From positions 167,496,172 to 167,560,171 of the forward strand of contig NC_073305.1 of NCBI RefSeq assembly GCF_027595985.1: a stretch of 64,000 nt of DNA, given 5' to 3'. The DNA comes from Sorex araneus. Lineage: Eukaryota > Chordata > Mammalia > Eulipotyphla > Soricidae. This document shows, one piece after another, positions 5,296 through 64,000 of this stretch. How positions within the stretch are numbered: the stretch's first letter is position 1; each line of letters begins with the position of its first letter. The notes under the pieces are model-generated. The model had not been told where the DNA came from. It searched no databases and worked only from the letters and a program-made list of their open reading frames with translations. The position numbers were made by a program, and so were the translations under genes.

Positions 5296-6610
5296 AAATA
5301 AACACAAAGCAAAGAAATTAAAATAAGCATGAGTTGAGATAGTGTAAAACTAATGGATAGTATACACACACAAAGACATACACACATATTAGAGCATACA
5401 CAAATAGACAAAGTATATTTCACACAAACTTGAACTGTACTATGAATAAAATACCTTATTTGTTATTTTTCTGATACCTCTGCCTTCTCCCTCCATTTTC
5501 ACCCTGGTGTTTCATTTATCAGGTGATTCAATGCACTGTTAACTGAGCTGTTTCCTCTTTTCTTTTGCTGTTTCAGGATATGGTCAATTATCCCCTCATT
5601 TCTCAAAATAACAGGTGTATTTTCTTCTTGGAAGAACATGAATAATATGTTGGTCTTGCTATTTCAAAAATATACATTATAGTTGGAATTACATGGTTTC
5701 AAGCTTGATCTGAAACTTCAGTCAAAATTTTATCAGTTTTTAACCCAAGGATTCTTTAAATTAATTCACCTCTAATATTATACTGTCCTTTCTAGAAGAA
5801 AATTTTTCAAAAAATTACTTTAGCAATATAATTTGCTTATGTTATTCAACTAGAGAAGAAGTAATTGCTTTAGAGCTGAAAAAATATTTTCCCTCATCAT
5901 ATTTTCTCCTTGTGAGCAATCATTTTTAAGAGATCATTCAGAGGTCTCTCACTATACAAGAATAAAACACATTTGTATTTTAATACATTGGTTCAAGTTT
6001 CCATAACAACATAATAACTGGAAACAGTAAGCTAAACAGCATTTAGAAAATTTAATTTTCAATCTACAATGATATTTCTTATGTGAATTGGAAATTATAC
6101 TTGATATACAAAGCATTTTAAGCCTGTAAATAACAGCAAAATGTAAAATAACCTGTCAGTCAAGCTATTTTCCTTAAAAGAACATCATATAGCCAGTAAA
6201 ATAATCTTATTTATAATCCATGTATTTTTCTTTAAAAATATGTCTTGTTAGCTAAATCCAACATTTTGACTCTAGAGTGGATTTGTACAAAATAAATTGA
6301 CTTAATTCTCTATAGAATTTTGTGAAAGTACACAAAGTGTTTTAAGTATTTTAATGTTTTTAAAATAGTTATTCAGTATTCACAATTTTATGTGATATTA
6401 AATTAGACACATCTTATAAATGAATGGTTATAGTATCACATCAATATTATACAAATCAATACTAGACCACACACTATACATATGCAAATTTAATAAACTG
6501 AGGCAGAGATAAACTTATCAAAGTTGGGGATATGATTCAGTGATGGTACACATGTCTTACACATGGTCAATGGCACTGAAAAATAATAATAAATGTAAGA
6601 TTAATAATAT
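5296..6610. other. AT-rich DNA, no recognised feature
   Basis: A short CA/TG-like run lies near 5361-5390. About 5560-5720 has the texture of old antisense L1, but I could not align it confidently. No supportable gene was found. Confidence 0.4.
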
Positions 6611-6800
6611 GGGACTGGAGCAATAGTACAGTGTGTAGGGCATTTGCCTTGCCCGCGGCCTGCCTGGGTTCGATTCCCAGCATCCCATATGGTCCCCCGA
6701 GCACCGCCAGGAGTTATTCCTGAGTGCAGAGCCAGGAGTAAGCCCTGGGCGTTACCGGGTGTGACCCAAAAAGCCAATAGTAATAATAATAATAATTATG
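6611..6800 (+). mobile_element. SOR SINE, near full length, with (TAA)n tail
   Basis: The complete order is present: head start 'gggactggagcaatagtaca' (A box), B box GGTTCGATTCC at 6667-6677, then 'cagcatcccatatggtcccc', 'gagcaccgccagg', 'cctgagtgcagagccagg' and 'gggtgtgacccaaaaagcc'. A (TAA)n microsatellite follows at 6776-6800. The intact B box makes it one of the better reference copies in the window. Transcription by RNA polymerase III is a family property, not shown here. Confidence 0.9.
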
Positions 6801-8050: not shown

Positions 8051-8063
8051 AAAATGTATTGTG

Positions 8064-8692
8064 TTTTTTTGCCGCCAAGATGTGATCCGGGGGGGCCACA
8101 TGTGTCTGCAGCCTCTCCGCAGCTGCATGAGCATAACTCCAGACACCAGCTAAATTTTTCAGCATGGGCAGCTCCTCGCAGAATGTCCCCAGACTAAGCC
8201 TCGGCCCCATGCCCGCCCAGGTGGGGAAAGGTATTTCTCTCTCCCTCTCTCTCTCGCCTCTTCCTTGCCAGGGATGAAGGGCGTGGTGACTGCCATATTA
8301 TGACGACCATAGATGGGGTTTGCAAGCTTGCAATGATCCAATATCTGGAAGAAATCTCCCTGGACTTAGTTGCTAAAGTACAGAAATCCAAATCCAAGAG
8401 ACCTCATTTCTCTTCACAACAGGTCTGACTCTAGTGGGGTACTCCTAACAATAATAGTGAGGTTTGTGTTGAAATATTGAATGTAACCATAGTAAATAGA
8501 AAGTAAAGTGAAATTTATCAGTTACATAGCGGGGGGGGGGGCTGCGGGGTGTTTTTTTTTTTTTTGGTGGTGGTGGTGGGATATGGGCACTGGTGAAGGG
8601 ATGGTTGTTCCAGCATTGTATAACTGAGACTTAAGCCTGAAAGCATTGTAATTTTCCACATGGTGATTCAATAAAATAAAATTCTTAAAAAG
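8064..8692 (+). mobile_element. L1-tailed short retroposon, copy 1
   Basis: It is flanked by a perfect 12-bp TSD, AAATGTATTGTG (8052-8063 and 8693-8704). The 3' half (from about 8340) matches the copies at 51617-52291 and 63193-63795: 'tagtgaggtttgtgttgaaa', 'gatatgggcactggtgaagg', 'gcattgtataactgaga', 'tggtgattcaataaaataaa'. The last ~130 bp also match the L1 3' UTR. The 5' part (8064-8330) is GC-rich ('gccgccaagatg', then a (CT)n stretch near 8237-8255) and I could not align it to the other copies. There is no convincing ORF. Confidence 0.8.
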
Positions 8693-8704
8693 AAATGTAT
8701 TGTG

Positions 8705-11499: not shown

Positions 11500-11677
11500 T
11501 TTTTTTTTTTTTGGCTTTTTGGGTCACGCCCGGCAATGCTCAGGGGTCACTCCTGACTCTGCACTCAGGAATTACCCCTGGTGATGCTCAGGGGACCATA
11601 TGGGATGCTAGGAATCAAACCCGGGTCGGCTGCATGCAAGGCAAACGCCCTACCCGCTGTGCTATCTCTCCAGGCCC
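11500..11677 (-). mobile_element. SOR SINE, full length, 14-bp TSD
   Basis: A perfect TSD AGGGATTAAATTCT flanks it (11486-11499 and 11678-11691). The poly(T) start, 'gctttttgggtcacgcccgg', 'accatatgggatgctagg', B-box complement 'aatcaaacccggg' and terminal 'tgctatctctccaggccc' are all present. Low divergence and an intact TSD point to a recent insertion. Confidence 0.93.
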
Positions 11678-21769: not shown

Positions 21770-22217
21770 ATGGCACACCTACACAATAGAATATTACACA
21801 GCAATTCAAGAAAATTATGTCATGAATTTTTCTTATAAATGGGTGGATATGGAGAAATGATAAGTAAGATAAATCAGAAGAAGAGAGGCAGATATAGAAT
21901 GACTACACTCATTTGTGGGATATAAAAAAAAGTAGTATAAAACTAATATCCAAGGTCATGAAAAACAGGTACCTGGAGGACTGGTCAATGGTTAAAAGTT
22001 TGACAAAAGTGTGTGTTGGGCAAAGGGCGGTTAGGATAGAGAAGGGACCATTATGATAACAACACTTAGAAATGATCACTCTGGACAAGAAATGAGTGTT
22101 GGAAGTTGGTAAAGGGATATACATAATAAAGGGATATACTGATACTTTCAATATATGCATTTCATACCGTAATGCCCCCAAAGAAAGAGAGACAGAAACA
22201 GACAGACCAAAGCAGAC

Positions 22218-22236
22218 ACAGAGAGAGACAGAGAGA

Positions 22237-22280
<44 letters not shown>
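22218..22280. repeat. (GA)n microsatellite in the L1-B 3' UTR
   Basis: Almost pure GA repeats occupy the position where related L1 3' UTRs in the window have 'ggagagagagaa', so the run probably expanded from that seed. Confidence 0.9.
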
Positions 22281-22282
<2 letters not shown>

Positions 22283-22826
22283 CCTGTCATTGAGGCAGGA
22301 GGGAAACTGGGGACAATGGTGGTGGGAAATGTACACTGGCGAAGGGACTTAGAATATTATATGACTGAACTCCCCGACCAAAATAAATACCCTGCATCCT
22401 ACTAGAATAAAGACACACTCAAATAATTAAATAGAACTGAAACATCAGAGGTAAATCCTCAGCAGTATGAATGGATAATCTATGTAAGTGGAGTAGAATA
22501 CATGAAGTAGAACAAAGAATATTTATGCAAGGAATGCTTTTTTGGATAACTTAAGAGTTACATGCAAAAATATTAAACTGAATTCATACCTCTGACCATG
22601 CTCAAAAGTTGATTCAAAATAAATTAAAGCCACAATATATAGATCAAAATCCATAAAACATATTGAGGAATATATAGACTGATCTACTCAAAAATAGATA
22701 CACATCTCAGCGTTATCTCAACAGTTTCACTTTATTAGTAAAGCAAATAAAAGCAAAATGCACAAATAAAATGAAATGTACTCTAAAAACTTAATCTGAA
22801 AAAAGAAACACTTGGATAGACATTAT

Positions 22827-28910: not shown

Positions 28911-28941
<31 letters not shown>
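28900..28941. repeat. (CT)n/(TA)n microsatellite
   Basis: A short CT run passes into TA repeats at the left edge of the antisense L1 that follows, where its 3' end would be. Confidence 0.9.
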
Positions 28942-29440
28942 CTCATTTTGGGCATTATGATCTGCAATTTGGATACTGAAAGATTATCATGTTTATCCTT
29001 TTATCTACTTTCAGCACTAATTCTTGAGTGCTGATTTCCAACTATCACTGTTATCTTGGTCCTTTCTCTATCCTAACTGCTCTCTTCCCGTTTGTGGCAA
29101 GCTTCAAACCATGGACCTGTCCTCCTGGCTTTTGTTTCTACGGTCTTTGGGTATTAGTCTGATACTATGTTTTTAATATCCCAGAAACAGTACAATCATT
29201 CTATGTCTGTCCCTCTCCTTCTGACTCATTTCACTCAGCATGATACTCTCCATGTCCTTCCATTTATAAGCAAACTTCATGACTTCATTTTCCTGCTTGC
29301 TGTATAGTATTTCATTGTATTCCATTGTGTAGATGTACTAGAGCTTCTTTATTCAGTTGTCTGCTTCTCACACACAGATTGTTTCCAGATTCTGGCTACT
29401 ATGAATAGTGTCACAATGAACATAGAACTGCAAAAAATGA
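28942..29440 (-). mobile_element. 5'-truncated L1, 3' UTR
   Basis: Read as reverse complement it gives, in order, 'cagactaatacccaaagacc', 'aggaggacaggtccatggtt', 'gaaagtagataaaaggataa' and 'attgcagatcataatgccca', parallel to the 3' UTR of L1-B. At right, 'tttcactcagcatgatactc' and 'attgtttccagattctggct' are the preceding L1 sequence. Confidence 0.8.
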
Positions 29441-33005: not shown

Positions 33006-34052
33006 GTTACATCAGGATCCTCTGTGAGCTGTGTTATGGATTCACCACCAGGATCTCATCATTCTACAAAGAAGTGATCATTGACATAAAGAGAGGGGTT
33101 CAGCAGGGTGATACAATTTCACGGAAACTCTTCAATGCCTCCCTCAGAATGTCATGCGACAATTGAAATGGGAAGGAATGGGAGTGAAAATAGACAGTCA
33201 GCAACTACACCACCTACAATTCACTGATGACATTGTTCTAATAACACCAAACATTAGCCAAGTGGCACGAAAGCTGACCGACTTTGACCATGAGTGTGTA
33301 AAGGTCGAACTACAGCTGAATCACATGAAGACAATGTTCATGAGAAACAGACTAGTTCCTGGTGTTCCAGTTGCCCTTAAAAAAAGGAACATTTTTGCAT
33401 ACAACAGTTATGTGTACCTAGGGCGAGAACTCAACCTTACACATGACCTGGCACCTTTACTTCGAAGGAGGATGAGAGCAGCGTGGAACGCCTTCAAGAA
33501 CATTGAAGATGTGATTAAGAGGATGAAGAACCTCCGGCTCTGGGCACACCTTTTTGACTCCACCATTCTTCCTGCACAAACATATACCTCAGAGATCTGG
33601 GCCCTACAAAAAAAAACAGGAGGAAAACACTATTTGGGCATCCCAAAGAGGAATTGAAAGAGTTATGCTTGGAATATTGTGTTTCACTTAAGTGAGAGAA
33701 GGAACTCTGAGTTCCGACCTCCATCGATGATCAGGAGACAAGGGCCGCTGTCTCAATTGCCAAGGTCGAAAATCAGATGGGCTGGACACATAATTCGATT
33801 TGGAGATGTCTGCTGGACTAGAGCTGTTACTGACTAGATTCCATGGCACATCAAAAGACCGCATGGCCACCCACCTATGAGATGGTCAGACTTCTTTTTC
33901 AAGATGCTGAATGAACGGTTTGAGGATCTTCGTGTTTCTGGAGCGAGCAGATGCCTTTGGGCTACACTAGCACGCAACAGGGACAAATACAGACATCACT
34001 GGTGCCCGCTCGAGTAATTCAATGAACAACAGGATGACAAGTGGTACAAGTG
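33006..34052 (+). pseudogene. RTE-clade LINE, 5'-truncated reverse transcriptase and 3' end
   Basis: This is the 3' third of an APE/RT-encoding non-LTR retrotransposon. The conceptual product shows, in order, GVQQGDTIS, a catalytic box FTDD (33220-33231, usually FADD in relatives known to me), LNHMKTMFMRN, YVYLGREL, a thumb-like stretch ending in 'AWNAFKNIEDVIKRMKNLR', IRWAGHIIRFGD, RWSDFFFKMLNERF and a C-terminus WATLARNRDKYRHHWCPLE. The open part covers 33154-33656; stops and frameshifts break it on both sides. The 3' end ('actggtgcccgctcgagtaa', 'caacaggatgac') is the segment shared with every RTE-SINE tail. It is not BovB-like by sequence. Confidence 0.9.
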
Positions 34053-35146: not shown

Positions 35147-35390
35147 TGGGAGGGAGGACAGGAGGAAGAAAGGAAGGAAGGAAGGAAGGAAGGAAGGAAG
35201 GAAGGGAGGAAGGAAGGAAGGAAGGAAGGAAGGAAGGAAGGAAGGAAGGAAGGAAGGAAGGAAGGAAGGAAGGAAGGAAGGAAGGAAGGAAGGAAGGGAA
35301 GGAGGGAGGGAGGGGAGGGAGGGAGAAGATAAGGAAGGAAGGAGGGGAGGGAGGGAGGCAAGGAAAGGAGAGAGGGAGGGAAAAAAGAAG
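35147..35390. repeat. (GAAG)n purine tract
   Basis: About 160 bases of nearly perfect AAGG tetranucleotides (35165-35300) pass into G-rich variants (GGGA, GGAGG) to 35390. All open frames over it, on both strands, are low-complexity artefacts. Confidence 0.97.
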
Positions 35391-50012: not shown

Positions 50013-50946
50013 AAAATAGGGTTCTTATCCTATTCTCATAGGGCGCAGGTCTCTGAGGTGTATGTTAGTACAGGAAGAACGGTGGAGTGGAAAAGATAAG
50101 CCAGGGGCTGGAGGTTCTTCATCCTCTTAACAACTTCTTGAACACTCCTGAAGGTTTTCCACACCACTCTCTGTTTCCTGTGCAGCTCAGGTGACAGGTC
50201 ATTAGTCATGTTGAGTTCTCGACCTAGGTACACATAACTGCTGCATTCGGAGATGTTCGTTCCATTGAGAGCAAATGGAACGTCAGGAACTAGTCTGTTT
50301 CTCATGAACATTGTCTTGGTGAGATTCAGCTGCAGTCTGACCTTTCCACACTCATGGTCGAAGTCTGCCAGCATTCATAACCACTTGACTGATGTTTGCT
50401 GTTATTAGAATGATGTCATCAGTGAAGCGGAGGTGGTATAGTTGCAACTGTCTATCTTCATTCCCATTCCTTCCCATTCTAGTTGATGCATGATGTTCTC
50501 TAGGGTGGCTGTAGGATAACATTGGTTTGTCCCTCCTCCCTTGCCACAAGGAGTTTAGGTTTAAGAGCTCTGGAGACACTCCCATTCCTTTGCTTATCTG
50601 TAAACTCTTCTCTGCACCCTCCTTCCCAACCAGTTAATCACCTTTTCCCTAATCAGATTATCTTTTAAGATCAGATCCTTTGAAAAACTCTAAACTTGAA
50701 CTGTAAGTTAGTGTCTCTAGCATAGTTTACTTTAAAGCAATGTCCTTTCTGTATGGACACAGGAAGACAGTTAATATTATGCTCTTGTAACTTGGGAGCT
50801 GATTGGCTCCAATAATATTCACTCCTGGGTATCTGCTTTCTCAACTCAGTTGCCCTTAGTTCCTAGCCCCCAAAAGCAGAGTCCCGATGAGGGACGGAAT
50901 GGACCCAGGGCAACCCACCTTTGTGTCACCACCCTATGTAATTTGC

Positions 50947-50964: not shown

Positions 50965-51230
50965 GAGACAGAAGAGGAGACAGAAGAAGACAGGGGAGAC
51001 AGAAGAAGATGACACAAGAAAAGACACAGAAGACACATAGGAAGACACAGAAGTGAAGGAGACAACACAGACAGAAGAAGACACAGAAGCAGAGGCAGAG
51101 CGGTCAGAAGAGAGCAGTGGAGAGACTACAGAGACAGAGACAGACAGACAGACAGAAGCAGGGGAGACACCGAAGCAAAGCTCAAGGCAAAAGAAGTGAG
51201 AGTGAGTGGGGACGAGAGAGAGAAGCAGAA
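50965..51230. repeat. Purine-rich imperfect repeat in the LTR
   Basis: Variants of 'gagacagaagaagac' recur many times between the TATA box and the poly(A) signal, ending in a 'gacagacagaca' run near 51142. It accounts for roughly a quarter of the LTR and for a Ser/Val-rich antisense frame that is not a gene. Confidence 0.85.
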
Positions 51231-51246
51231 TGGGAAAGCATATTGG

Positions 51247-51252
51247 AATAAA
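51247..51252 (+). promoter_or_regulatory. LTR polyadenylation signal
   Basis: AATAAA in the solo LTR, about 150 bases before its 3' end, consistent with the R region. Confidence 0.7.
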
Positions 51253-51616
51253 CTGCAACTGAGACCAACCAGCCTGGCACTCCTTCCTTCCTTCTCCTGC
51301 CTTGTCATCACCACCAACCTTCCAGGCGTGGGGGAAGTGGCTAAATGCTGGCGGCAGGAGAGATAGAGCCCCACTGGCCCCCTTCCCTTTTTTGTGTTTA
51401 CACAGGTGGCACTGAAGGGTTCCAGTGAAATGGTATCACCCTGCTGAACTCCTCCTTTAACGTCAATGATCACTTCCTTGTAGAATGGTGAGATCCTGGT
51501 GGTGAATCCAAAAGACAGCTCACAGAGGATCCGATGCACTGAGTTTGAACACCCTGTTTGGCTAGGGCTTCGATGGTCTCTTCAGTCTCAACATAATCAA
51601 AGGCCTTCTTTAAATC

Positions 51617-52291
51617 GAGTCTCAGCCCGGGCCAGAGCCCGGGCTCCGGCCGAGTTTCGACCCAGGTGCCCATGCCTCTGCACAGCCGGTGGATGTGGAA
51701 CGAGCAGGAACCAGAGACAGCTTTAGGATTTGGGTTTCCAGCAAGTGCTTGCAACCATGTATGGAGACTGTGAACTAAGCTTTTGCTACATGCTGTTCCA
51801 GGAAAGGAAATGATTCATTTTCCAACTTAAATCTTGCGGACTTAATTACTAGAATACAGAAATTGTAAAACGCGCGGCCGCAGTAGCAGCCGCGCAACAT
51901 TTTATCTCGTCATTCTCATCAGTGGAAAACTTATTAGCAAATATCTCCCTGTTAATAGAGCTGTATTCTTGGGGGATAAATTCCAACAAAAATAGTGGGT
52001 CTGTTTTGAAACTCCAACAACAATAGTGAGTTGTGTGTTGAAATCTGGAATGTAATCAAGGTAAAGAGAAAAGGAAGTGAAATTATCAGTCACGCACGGG
52101 GGAGAGGTTTGGGGGGTGAGGGGTGGGATGTATACTGTTTTGTTTTTGTTTTTGTTTTGCTTTTGTTTTTATTGGTGGTGGAATATGGGCACTGGTGAAG
52201 GGATGGGTGTTTGAGCATTGTATAACTGAGATATAAGTCTGAGAACTTTGTAACTCTCCACTTGGTGATTTAATAAAATAAATTTTTTAAA
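51617..52291 (+). mobile_element. L1-tailed short retroposon, copy 2, complete
   Basis: A perfect 18-bp TSD (51599-51616 and 52292-52309, starting AAAGGCCTTC) defines both ends: 675 bp. The 5' part is GC-rich with a terminal hairpin and GCGGCCGC at 51874-51881. The middle has 'caacaatagtgagttgtgtg' and 'gtaatcaaggtaaagagaaa'. The 3' part ('gtggaatatgggcactggtg', 'gcattgtataactgagatat', 'gtgatttaataaaataaa') matches the L1 3' UTR end. The AAA start of the TSD fits L1 endonuclease. It has no meaningful ORF, so it must be mobilised in trans. Confidence 0.93.
51624..51645 (+). repeat. 9-bp GC hairpin at the retroposon 5' end
   Basis: AGCCCGGGC (51624-51632) and GCCCGGGCT (51637-51645) are perfectly complementary around a CAGA loop, starting 7 bases from the element's 5' terminus. 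Confidence 0.85.
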
Positions 52292-53735
52292 AAAGGCCTT
52301 CTTTAAATCAATGAACGTTATACAGAGGGGCATTCTGAATTCTCACAAAACCTCAATAAACTTGGTCACCATGTTGATATGGTCGATTGTGCTGATTCCT
52401 TTTCAGAACCTGGCTTGCTCAAATGGTTGTCCTTCATCTAGTGTTCTGCCAATCCTATTCATGATGACTGGAGTGAATAACTTGTAGACGACAGACAACA
52501 AGCAGATCGGGTGGTAGTTGCCAATGCCATGGATGTCTCCCTTCTTGTACAACAGGACAGTCCTGCTGGTTTTCCATTGGGACGGAACCTTGCATTCGGA
52601 CAGGTAGCGTATGAAGAACCGAACCAGTGTATTGATAAGTACTGGCGGCAGATTCTTCAGGTGTTTATTTGAGTCTGACCTTCTCTGGGCCAGGTGCTGT
52701 ACGTGTCTTTACCGATGAAATGGCATGTAGTTTTTTGGAAGGGAGGATGTTGGGAACAACATATCCATCCTCCGGAATTTGGTATGTGGGCAGGTGGTCA
52801 TGGCTATCGAAGAGATCTGCGTAGAAGTCATGGATAACCTTTTCCATTGCCCTTCTGGAAGATGTGATAGATCCATCAAAATGTTGGAGGGCAGTCATCT
52901 TTGCTTTATACTTGGCAAAAGGGGTGAGCATTGCAAATACTTTTCCCAGGTTTTGTTGCATCAGCCAACACTGCTTGTCTTCTCTCTTTGAGGTCTTCCA
53001 TTATTGCTTCTCTGCACAGCTTTGTGAGCTCAGATGTTAGCATGTGATTGCCTGAGGTTTGCGCCAAACCACATTGGCGAATGAGCTCAAGAGTTTCCGA
53101 AGACAGGCTTTTTTTTTTTTTGTGGCTTTCTCTCTGTCGGTGTTCCTCACACAATCATGGAGTTGCTGAACCAGTGGATCGTTTTCCTAGTCCTAGTCCA
53201 TGTTCTCAGTGAGGGCATCTTTGCATATTGCCGCAATAGTGCCAAAAAGCTCCTAGTTGGTGGTCATTCTGGGAGTTCTCTTCTTAAACTTTGCAGCCTT
53301 TTCTTTGCACTATGTGAAGTAGAATTTCGCATGAAGGAGATGGTGGTCTGATCCCATTTGGAATTTTGGGACATAAGTGACATCAGTCAGACAAAAACCA
53401 TCGATTGAATATGATGTGGTCAATTTCGTTGTGGAACTGTCCACGAGGAGAGTATCATATTAAGTAACAGAAGACAGAGGTGAAAGAACAAATGCCAGAT
53501 GATCTCACTTGACAAAAGAACAGAGTCAAAATATGGGAATAGACAATGTCAAACAGCAGCAAGTCTCTACTCTGATGTTACAAAACTGATTACCAATCAG
53601 TCTGGTGGGAAATGATGATCAGACTAGAGGTTATATGCATTGGTGGTGGGTTCATGGAAACTCTGGTGGTGGTGAGGTACAATAACTTTGTGCATAAATT
53701 CTATTATAACCATGTTTCCAAAACAATAATAAAAG

Positions 53736-55239: not shown

Positions 55240-55770
55240 CTGAGTCTTTTATCACTTCTTCGATCTTGAGTGATAACTTTGATGGATAGTGTACTCTTTG
55301 TTGGAGGTTTTTTTTTTCATTCACGAGTTTGGCTTGATCATACCAATTGCTTCTTGCCTGTTGTAGACTAAGTTCTTAGATTTGCTTTGAGTTTTATGAA
55401 GATTCTCTGATATGTGAATTTTTGCTTCTCTATTGCTGCTTTTAGGATTCTATGTTTGGCTCTTACCACGATGATTGCTAAGTGTCTTTGTATTTGTCTA
55501 TTTGGATTTATTGTATATCTGTCTCTAATTTTCCTGAGCCTGACTAAGAACTTCTTCAATGAGTGAAATAAGTTCTCAGTTATTATTTTTCAACCTATAA
55601 TGCTTCCCCATCCCACGTCTTCTGGAACATTTATGATGTCAATGTTATTCTTGTTGAATAAGTTTCTTATGTTTCATTTTTTTGACTCTTTGTTCTTATC
55701 ATTAATATAGATATTGTGCTTATTTTATCTTTCAGTGCACTAATGAAATCTCTGGATACTTCTGCTCTTC
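55240..55770 (-). mobile_element. Ancient L1, antisense
   Basis: It resembles an old-L1 antisense stretch known from many mammals: 'ccaattgcttcttgcctgtt', 'tttgcttctctattgctgct', 'gattgctaagtgtctttgta', 'acatttatgatgtcaatgtt', 'attcttgttgaataagtttc'. The match is from memory. Confidence 0.5.
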
Positions 55771-63056: not shown

Positions 63057-63192
63057 AAGACAAGACTTATAGAATTTGGTAGCTAACAGATGAGGTCAAG
63101 CACAAAGGAAAGGTTAAAGGTAATCTCAGGCAATTAGGGATGCTCATAGTAGCTCTGTAATCTTCTCTTCAGTGAGGAAGAAGGGCAATTTA

Positions 63193-63795
63193 TTTATTTT
63201 TTTTACCTTTTATTTACTTATTTATTTATATTTTTTTAAATTTTATCACCATGTGGAAAGTTACAGAGTTCTCAGGTTTATGTCTCAGTTATACCGTATT
63301 CAAACACCCATCCCTTCACCAGTGCCCATATTCCACCACCAAAATCCCAGGTATACCCCCAGCCCCCCACCCCAACTGTATAATTGATGAATTTCACTTC
63401 ATTTTCTCTTCACCTTGATTACGTTCCATATTTCAACACAAAACTCACTATTGCTGTGGGAGTTACACCCCCAAATAAGATAACCCTAATAAGGAAGCAT
63501 TTGATAATTAGTTTTCCATTAAAAGATTGTATGTTTTCAGGTTTTAGAAAAGGTAGCGCGGCCGCGTTAGCTCGGATGTGTCCCAGTCCCAAATCCTGGA
63601 GCTGTGTTAGTTACTGCTCAGTTTCGCCAGGGCTCCATCTGGAGAAGGTGTGCTGGAGGCACCTCCTCCTTCCGGCTCCCCGGTGTTGCTGGCCCCAATT
63701 CGGGTCCGGAGCATTTTCCGGGCCGCGTTGCTCACCAGAATGCCTGCCGCTTCTCTGTTGACTGTGGCAAGATGGCGCCGAGGGTGGGTCGAGGC
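63193..63795 (-). mobile_element. L1-tailed short retroposon, copy 3, complete
   Basis: A perfect 15-bp TSD AAGAAGGGCAATTTA flanks it (63178-63192 and 63796-63810): 603 bp. The 3' half equals copies 1 and 2. GCGGCCGC is at 63558-63565, about the same distance from the 3' end as in copy 2 once the T-rich spacer of copy 2 is discounted. The 5' end in sense reads 'ctcggcgccatcttgccac'. Its 5' module differs from copy 2: a ~115 bp block between 'aggatttggg' and the GCGGCCGC site is missing. Open frames over the GC-rich part (Cys/Pro/Ser-rich) show no family motif. Confidence 0.93.
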
Positions 63796-63814
63796 AAGAA
63801 GGGCAATTTAATGA

Positions 63815-64000
63815 TGAAGCTTAGAAACTGACCTCACATGCTAGGGGACAAGGCAGCTCAAATAGAGAATTCTGGGAACACCAAATAGAGGATGTCGGGA
63901 GGACCCAGACGGGTCGGAAGATACGAGCTGAAAGTAGACTATAGACCGAACATGATGGCCACTCAATACCTCTATTGCAAACTACAACACCCAAAAGGAG
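63815..64000 (+). mobile_element. L1 3' UTR, cut by the window end
   Basis: It matches 1823-2030 and 38412-38915 in order: 'gacctcacatgctaggggac', 'aaggcagctcaaatagagaa', 'gctgaaagtagactatagac', 'gatggccactcaatacctct', 'caacacccaaaaggag'. It continues beyond 64000. Confidence 0.88.

What the first reader, a model, noticed from the sequence alone, without database searches (positions are those of the whole stretch)
51617..52291. An L1-parasitic ~0.6 kb retroposon with exchangeable GC-rich 5' modules
Three copies (8064-8692, 51617-52291, 63193-63795) each have perfect TSDs of 12, 18 and 15 bp and share a 3' half ending in L1 3' UTR sequence. Their 5' halves differ: copy 2 and copy 3 share 'aggatttggg' and GCGGCCGC but differ by a ~115 bp block, and copy 1 has a different GC-rich start. 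There is no ORF and no tRNA promoter. The build (GC-rich 5' module, LINE-derived 3' module) recalls composite retroposons such as SVA, though it is unrelated in sequence.
Basis: partly seen in the sequence, partly recalled or inferred. Interest (0 to 1): 0.8.

Follow-up and report, generated by a model that had tools for sequence, protein, structure and literature searches.

The report
Shrew L1-tailed retroposon with swapped heads
Three short copied-and-pasted DNA elements in what looks like a shrew genome share a tail borrowed from the L1 jumping gene but carry different GC-rich heads, a build known best from the SVA elements of apes.

Summary
Three insertions (8064-8692 +, 51617-52291 +, 63193-63795 -) have target-site duplications of 12, 18 and 15 bp and A-rich tails. 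They share a 3' domain of about 260 bp. Its last 112-196 bp matches L1 3' UTRs of this window, two of which follow decayed L1 ORF2 ends; the ~90 bp before that is family-specific. Upstream the copies are a mosaic: blocks in constant order, present or absent, under different 5' heads. The heads of copies 1 and 2 may be remotely related; copy 3's is unlike both but recurs (53 of 61 residues) in a predicted Sorex araneus protein. Heads keep CpGs: o/e 0.41-0.78, window 0.24. Copy 2 lies inside an RTE-type LINE. Most likely this is a non-autonomous, pol II-transcribed retroposon moved by L1, whose GC-rich first exon/promoter was exchanged by splicing or template switching, as in SVA_F1 and pt_SVA_D6. 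Internally deleted or spliced L1s remain a serious rival. The host genome could not be searched, so copy number, the heads' origin and novelty against Repbase/Dfam are open.

The parts
8052..8063 (.). 5' TSD of copy 1 (12 bp; partner 8693-8704)
   Evidence: 0 of 400 random placements as long
8064..8331 (+). copy 1, own 5' head
   Evidence: CpG o/e 0.41 in first 300 bp; weak similarity to copy 2 head
8332..8387 (+). copy 1 block shared with copy 2 (51809-51863)
   Evidence: score 39.5, 0 of 300 shuffles
8434..8691 (+). copy 1 shared 3' domain
   Evidence: 265.5 bits
8571..8682 (+). copy 1 L1 3'-UTR-like terminus (112 bp)
   Evidence: E 4.3e-17
8693..8704 (.). 3' TSD of copy 1
51599..51616 (.). 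5' TSD of copy 2 (18 bp; partner 52292-52309)
   Evidence: 0 of 400
51617..51698 (+). copy 2, own 5' head (68% GC in the first 100 bp of the copy)
51699..51734 (+). copy 2 block shared with copy 3 (ends aggatttggg)
   Evidence: score 37.5, 0 of 300
51735..51861 (+). copy 2 block absent from copy 3; its 3' part (from 51809) is shared with copy 1; right boundary approximate
51886..51970 (+). copy 2 block shared with copy 3 (GCGGCCGC at 51874-51881 lies just before it), largely absent from copy 1
   Evidence: score 37.5, 0 of 300
52001..52293 (+). copy 2 shared 3' domain; a ~31 bp tandem duplication (51978-52043) overlaps its start
52087..52282 (+). copy 2 L1 3'-UTR-like terminus (196 bp, with a T-rich insert)
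   Evidence: E 2.8e-19
52292..52309 (.). 3' TSD of copy 2
63624..63795 (-). copy 3, own 5' head; open frame related to C-terminus of S. araneus LOC129399574 (match runs 63792-63610)
   Evidence: 53 of 61 residues identical
63588..63623 (-). copy 3 block shared with copy 2
63474..63565 (-). copy 3 NotI-containing block shared with copy 2
   Evidence: (E 3.9e-5 for 63566-63445)
63221..63471 (-). copy 3 shared 3' domain
   Evidence: 255.8 bits
63241..63373 (-). copy 3 L1 3'-UTR-like terminus (133 bp)
   Evidence: E 2.2e-18
63178..63192 (.). TSD of copy 3 at its 3' end (15 bp)
   Evidence: 1 of 400
63796..63810 (.). TSD of copy 3 at its 5' end
21771..22419 (+). reference L1: decayed ORF2 C-terminus (21771-21919) followed by its 3' UTR
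28931..29352 (-). reference L1: decayed ORF2 C-terminus (29352-29179) followed by part of its 3' UTR

Best explanation
A family of short (about 0.6-0.7 kb), non-coding, probably RNA-polymerase-II-transcribed retroposons of the shrew lineage, moved in trans by L1. Shown here: TSDs and A-rich tails; a shared 3' domain whose last 112-196 bp is L1 3' UTR; internal blocks in constant order, present or absent between copies; different CpG-rich 5' heads. Inferred: the L1-derived terminus supplies the polyadenylation signal and A-tail used for target-primed reverse transcription; the GC-rich head is a captured first exon that carries start site and promoter; heads and internal blocks are exchanged at the RNA level, by splicing of upstream first exons onto the element and alternative use of internal exons, or by template switching during reverse transcription.
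For: TSDs above chance. The L1 3'-UTR profile hits all three termini, E 2.8e-19 to 4.3e-17, and includes two 3' UTRs that directly follow L1 ORF2 ends. In the last ~112 bp the copies are 82-87% identical to each other and 63-76% to three window L1 3' ends, so they form a lineage. Blocks shared in constant order with presence/absence. All three carry heads and are similar in length (629, 675, 603 bp); no 5'-truncated member was found in the window. Head CpG o/e 0.41, 0.78, 0.74 against 0.24 for the window. Copy 3's head recurs in a predicted S. araneus protein. No tRNA found in the copies. [quoted passage not shown]
Against: Only three copies; the genome could not be searched. The heads of copies 1 and 2 may simply be diverged relatives. 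No transcript, promoter or splice evidence. The copies are old (K2P 0.22-0.29 over 234-239 sites of the 3' domain), so some 5' differences could be decay plus deletions. P0121 is a gene prediction and shows only copy 3's head, not that head joined to the shared 3' domain elsewhere. The target sites fit the L1 endonuclease exactly in one copy and within one base in the other two.
Confidence: 0.5

Rival explanations
1. Internally deleted or spliced L1 (mini-L1, SpIRE-like). Each copy is an L1 5' UTR joined to an L1 3' UTR with the ORFs lost; the heads differ because L1 lineages replace their 5' UTRs.
For: The 3' terminus is L1-derived. Distinct 5' UTRs in successive primate L1 subfamilies are described (PMC13174262 section 22) and spliced L1 retrocopies exist (PMC5860796, start of abstract and passages). 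By eye copy 1 has GCCAAGATG at its positions 11-19, placed like the YY1 site that I recall for human L1 (no hit at 2 mismatches to the 11-mer used); copy 3 has GGCGCCATCTT at 17-27 in the reverse sense. Some pairwise tests hint that even the ~90 bp segment could be remote L1 3' UTR (2 of 15 pairs at 2 or fewer of 300 shuffles).
Against: No L1 ORF1 or ORF2 match lies in the copies (at E <= 5, 51 at E <= 1; human queries recalled). The six window L1 3'-UTR pieces, four of which reach the G-rich tract, score no better against the family segment than shuffled controls. The copies match only 112-196 bp of a 488-position L1 3'-UTR model. The SpIREs of PMC5860796 are intra-5' UTR or 5' UTR/ORF1 splices (abstract passage).
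Confidence: 0.3
2. Processed retrocopies of alternatively spliced isoforms of one host gene (coding or lncRNA) whose last exon is an exonised L1 3' end; not an element family in its own right.
For: Constant-order blocks with presence/absence look like cassette exons. Copy 3's head is annotated as part of a predicted S. araneus gene.
Against: Three retrocopies of one gene within 64 kb would be unusual (inference). Copy 3's head shows no similarity to the other two, so alternative first exons must also be assumed.
Confidence: 0.15
3. One ordinary retroposon family with a single ancestral head, where age, CpG decay and random deletions make the heads look different.
For: Weak copy 1-copy 2 head similarity; K2P 0.22-0.29.
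Against: Copy 3's 172-bp head gives no hit in copies 1 or 2, while its relative in S. araneus is still 53 of 61 residues identical.
Confidence: 0.05

Closest known systems
SVA_F1 and pt_SVA_D6 (non-canonical SVA, human and chimpanzee)
   Same: Non-autonomous; GC-rich first exon as exchangeable 5' end over a constant 3' part (PMC6139936, abstract and section 10).
   Different: Different host lineage. No VNTR-like array among the tandem repeats listed in the copies (a ~31-bp duplication and T-rich repeats in copy 2). 3' end from L1; in SVA an LTR-derived part is named (PMC13174262 passages).
LAVA/PVA/FVA composite retrotransposons of gibbons
   Same: Composite, differing terminal modules; LAVA is L1-Alu-VNTR-Alu (starts of abstracts of PMC4432496 and PMC7353768 in the listing).
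   Different: No VNTR array here; Alu was not compared directly.
SpIREs (spliced L1 retrocopies)
   Same: Retrotransposed processed RNA with block loss.
   Different: Those in PMC5860796 (passages) are intra-5' UTR or 5' UTR/ORF1 splices; no L1 ORF match lies in these copies.
HAL1 (half-L1)
   Same: L1 derivative moved by L1 (recalled).
   Different: HAL1 keeps ORF1 (recalled); none found in these copies.
SOR SINE of shrews
   Same: Short and non-autonomous, shrew genome (PMC7279448 and PMC11240701, passages).
   Different: Pol III SINE; the two tRNA hits of the window fall on tRNA-like repeats that I take for SOR (label recalled), not on these copies.

Membership tests
L1-mobilised non-autonomous retroposon | TSDs of about 7-20 bp | tested here: met
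   12, 18, 15 bp; 0, 0, 1 of 400 random placements as long
L1-mobilised non-autonomous retroposon | insertion at a TT/AAAA-like L1 endonuclease site | tested here: inconclusive
   Contexts: copy 2 TC/AAAG; copy 1 CA/AAAT by the exact TSD, TC/AAAA one base earlier; copy 3 AT/TAAA, or TT/AAAT one base later. Compatible, three sites only, no null computed
L1-mobilised non-autonomous retroposon | A-rich 3' tail after a poly(A) signal | tested here: met
   Copies 1 and 2 have AATAAAATAAA before the end; copy 3 is changed at that place but has AATAAA within its long A-rich tail
L1-mobilised non-autonomous retroposon | no own reverse transcriptase | tested here: met
   no L1 ORF1/ORF2 match in the three copies
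tRNA-derived SINE | pol III A and B boxes / tRNA-like head | tested here: not met
   ARAGORN finds none in the copies; at 2 mismatches B-box-like 11-mers number 0, 2, 1, A-like ones are many, and by eye no A-B pair has the usual 30-60 bp spacing
SVA | hexamer repeat, Alu-like region, VNTR, SINE-R parts | tested here: inconclusive
   no hexamer or VNTR array of that kind among the tandem repeats and an L1-like 3' end; Alu and SINE-R were not compared directly
SpIRE / internally deleted L1 | both flanks derive from one L1, with a deletion at splice sites | tested here: inconclusive
   3' flank L1-derived; no Sorex L1 5' UTR available to compare
SVA_F1-like working mode | 5' head is a GC-rich first exon with promoter activity | not testable with these tools
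   CpG retention only; no transcript data

The most novel reading that the evidence does not exclude
Shrews evolved, independently of apes, an SVA-like composite retroposon with interchangeable CpG-island promoter modules over a constant L1-derived tail. That would make promoter swapping a recurrent route by which L1 parasites renew themselves.
Probability: 0.38. Interest if true: 0.7.

Novelty: new variant of a known kind. Interest (0 to 1): 0.5.

Why it matters
If confirmed, head exchange in composite L1 parasites is not a hominoid peculiarity but a convergent strategy. A shrew genome would then give an independent set of natural experiments on which 5' ends let an L1-dependent RNA be transcribed and copied, and on how L1 3' ends are reused.

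Tried and rejected
Rejected: a tRNA-derived SINE. An RTE-mobilised element: RTE pieces are in the window, but the terminus is L1-like and the tail A-rich. A plain 5'-truncated L1: no ORF match in the copies, and three similar lengths, each with a head. The ~90 bp family segment as ordinary L1 3' UTR is left open: 2 of 15 pairwise tests were at 2 or fewer of 300 shuffles, but the profile search gave at best 3.0 bits (E 0.069), reached by 5 of 40 shuffled sets, and the reverse search gave no hit.

Led nowhere: the shared 24-mer in viral contigs and genome contigs, and 31- to 38-mers of the tRNA-like repeat (viral contigs and genome contigs) and of the L1 3' UTR (viral contigs only), all 0 matches; these are not collections of mammal genomes, and the tool says the window's own genome may be left out. 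A 125-residue antisense frame of copy 3 against the protein database: 6 candidates, none at E <= 0.1. PDB search with the copy 3 head: none at E <= 1; with P0121: two hits at E 0.8, taken as chance. Pfam on P0121: none. Pfam on five window frames: RVT_1 on 33112-33654 only, 25.7 bits, below its curated 29.6 (two further hits at E 0.06 taken as chance); none for the frames at 51129-51581, 52406-52708, 52668-53000 and 63384-63758. Rfam on the window: 0 at gathering scores. Literature: ten answered searches; no listing that I saw named such a shrew element, but listings are capped, Repbase and Dfam are not searchable here, and most subscription papers are not held.

Full report
What was checked. 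Each is flanked by an exact target-site duplication of 12, 18 or 15 bp; random placements of the same span in the window reached these lengths in 0, 0 and 1 of 400 trials. The same test on three L1 3'-UTR fragments, with ends set by eye, gave 8, 5 and 10 bp (19, 322 and 1 of 400; the last is A-rich). The target sites are compatible with the L1 endonuclease: TC/AAAG in copy 2, and within one base of TC/AAAA and TT/AAAT in copies 1 and 3. All three end in A-rich tails.

Host. The window looks like a shrew's. A frame at 33112-33654 has a weak RVT_1 match (25.7 bits, below the curated 29.6) and finds 161 proteins with E <= 0.001 among 181 candidates; in the 120 listed the named rows are nematodes (Nippostrongylus, Angiostrongylus, Heligmosomoides, Necator, Ancylostoma) except one, Sorex araneus LOC129403502 (P0081, 60% identity). 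That is the pattern described for RTE1_Sar (PMC6542046, listing and passages); I had no RTE1_Sar sequence to compare. Copy 3's head matches another S. araneus protein. That the tRNA-like repeats are SOR SINEs is recalled.

3' domain. A profile of the three 3' ends finds those three in full, four partial matches that lie in L1 3'-UTR pieces, and one sub-threshold match inside copy 2. The L1 assignment was anchored in the window itself. The profile of these six (488 positions) hits the termini of all three copies with E 2.8e-19 (copy 2), 2.2e-18 (copy 3) and 4.3e-17 (copy 1), over 196, 133 and 112 bp; the hit begins at about the G-rich tract in copies 2 and 3 and just after it in copy 1. The ~90 bp upstream, common to all three copies, does not stand out against the L1 3' UTRs: best 3.0 bits, reached by 5 of 40 shuffled sets. 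Pairwise tests were mixed, 2 of 15 pairs at 2 or fewer of 300 shuffles, so a remote L1 origin is not excluded. In the last ~112 bp the copies are 82-87% identical to each other, 63-76% to three L1 3' ends, and those are 72-81% identical to each other: a separate lineage.

5' region. Local alignments against approximately dinucleotide-preserving shuffles show c1 269-324 = c2 193-247 (score 39.5; 0 of 300), c2 83-118 = c3 173-208 (37.5; 0 of 300) and c2 270-354 = c3 231-322 (37.5; 0 of 300). Weaker matches, such as a second c1-c2 alignment (24 of 300), are not counted. So copy 2 contains blocks that copies 1 and 3 each hold in part, in the same order; copy 3 lacks roughly c2 119-245 and copy 1 largely lacks the NotI block. 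In that local alignment the two GCGGCCGC octamers are not opposite each other; in the multiple alignment they are. Further upstream the heads differ: c1 against c2 gives a weak signal (nhmmer 5.1 bits, 0 of 60 shuffles; E 0.016 and 0.17), and c3 gives no hit against either.

Copy 3's head is not unique to this locus. Read from the element's first base it is open for 62 codons. Residues 1-58 found one protein at E <= 1 among 39 candidates: S. araneus LOC129399574 (P0121, 207 aa, E 1.6e-22). tblastn aligns its residues 147-207 with 53 of 61 identities, from nucleotide 4 of copy 3 to the same stop. P0121 has no Pfam domain; I take it as another copy of the module, not as proof of a gene. Whether its first 146 residues are host sequence or more of the element cannot be told.

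Composition. CpG o/e in the first 300 bp is 0.41, 0.78 and 0.74 against 0.24 for the window. For copies with K2P 0.22-0.29 in the 3' domain such retention is notable and would fit germline-unmethylated, promoter-like sequence; that is inference. No tRNA was found in the copies, and by eye no A-B box pair has the usual spacing.

Age. Copy 2 interrupts an RTE-type copy in antisense: matches to the RTE copy near 33 kb lie at 50039-50376 and 51405-51532 (79 and 88%). On its other side, frames at 52406-53000 look RTE-like by eye, with a weak match to the L1 reverse transcriptase (E 0.005) but none in Pfam. If this is RTE1_Sar, found in S. araneus only among the mammals tested and placed after the split from hedgehog (PMC6542046, passages), the insertion is specific to the shrew lineage.

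How it probably works (inference). L1 proteins copy a pol II RNA that ends in an L1-derived 3' terminus with poly(A). Inserted copies are transcribed again from their own GC-rich head, or from a neighbouring CpG-island first exon spliced onto them, and so acquire a new head. Ape SVAs do this: in SVA_F1 (MAST2) and pt_SVA_D6 (STK40) a GC-rich first exon replaces the 5' part and can serve as promoter, shown for SVA_F1 and assumed for the other (PMC6139936, abstract and section 10). Chimera formation by L1 at the RNA level is also reported for the human lineage (PMC13174262, abstract, passages, section 22). The main rival, internally deleted or spliced L1 with lineage-specific 5' UTRs, cannot be excluded without a Sorex L1 5' UTR.

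Limits. Novelty against Repbase or Dfam was not testable. Ten literature searches (listed under Tried and rejected) showed no listing that named such a shrew element.

Noticed in passing
33112-33654 (+); 50039-50376, 51405-51581 and 52406-53000 (-): RTE-type LINE fragments; the first is closest to nematode proteins and to Sorex araneus LOC129403502, as described for the horizontally transferred RTE1_Sar (PMC6542046). Copy 2 sits inside the second.
   Followed up: partly
63796-64000: An L1 3'-UTR fragment on the + strand starts within about 25 bp of the 5' end of copy 3 (on the - strand), head to head. Copy 3 has its own TSD, so probably two separate insertions.
   Followed up: no
51872-51895: GCGCGGC...GCCGCGC hairpin in copy 2 (the 49-nt stretch around it folds at -18.6 kcal/mol as RNA; the corresponding 61-nt stretch of copy 3 at -5.7).
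   Followed up: no
8217-8276 (copy 1): Reads CCCAG|GTGGGG...TCTCTCTCTCGCCTCTTCCTTGCCAG|GGATG, like a tiny retained intron with donor, pyrimidine tract and acceptor; by eye only.
   Followed up: no
55247-55697 (-): Decayed L1 ORF1-like stretch (tblastn E 2e-6 with a recalled human query).
   Followed up: no
6609-6689 (+), 11600-11672 (-): ARAGORN calls tRNA-Ala inside two copies of the abundant tRNA-like repeat, probably SOR SINE (label recalled).
   Followed up: no
35151-35365: Long AGGA tetranucleotide array.
   Followed up: no
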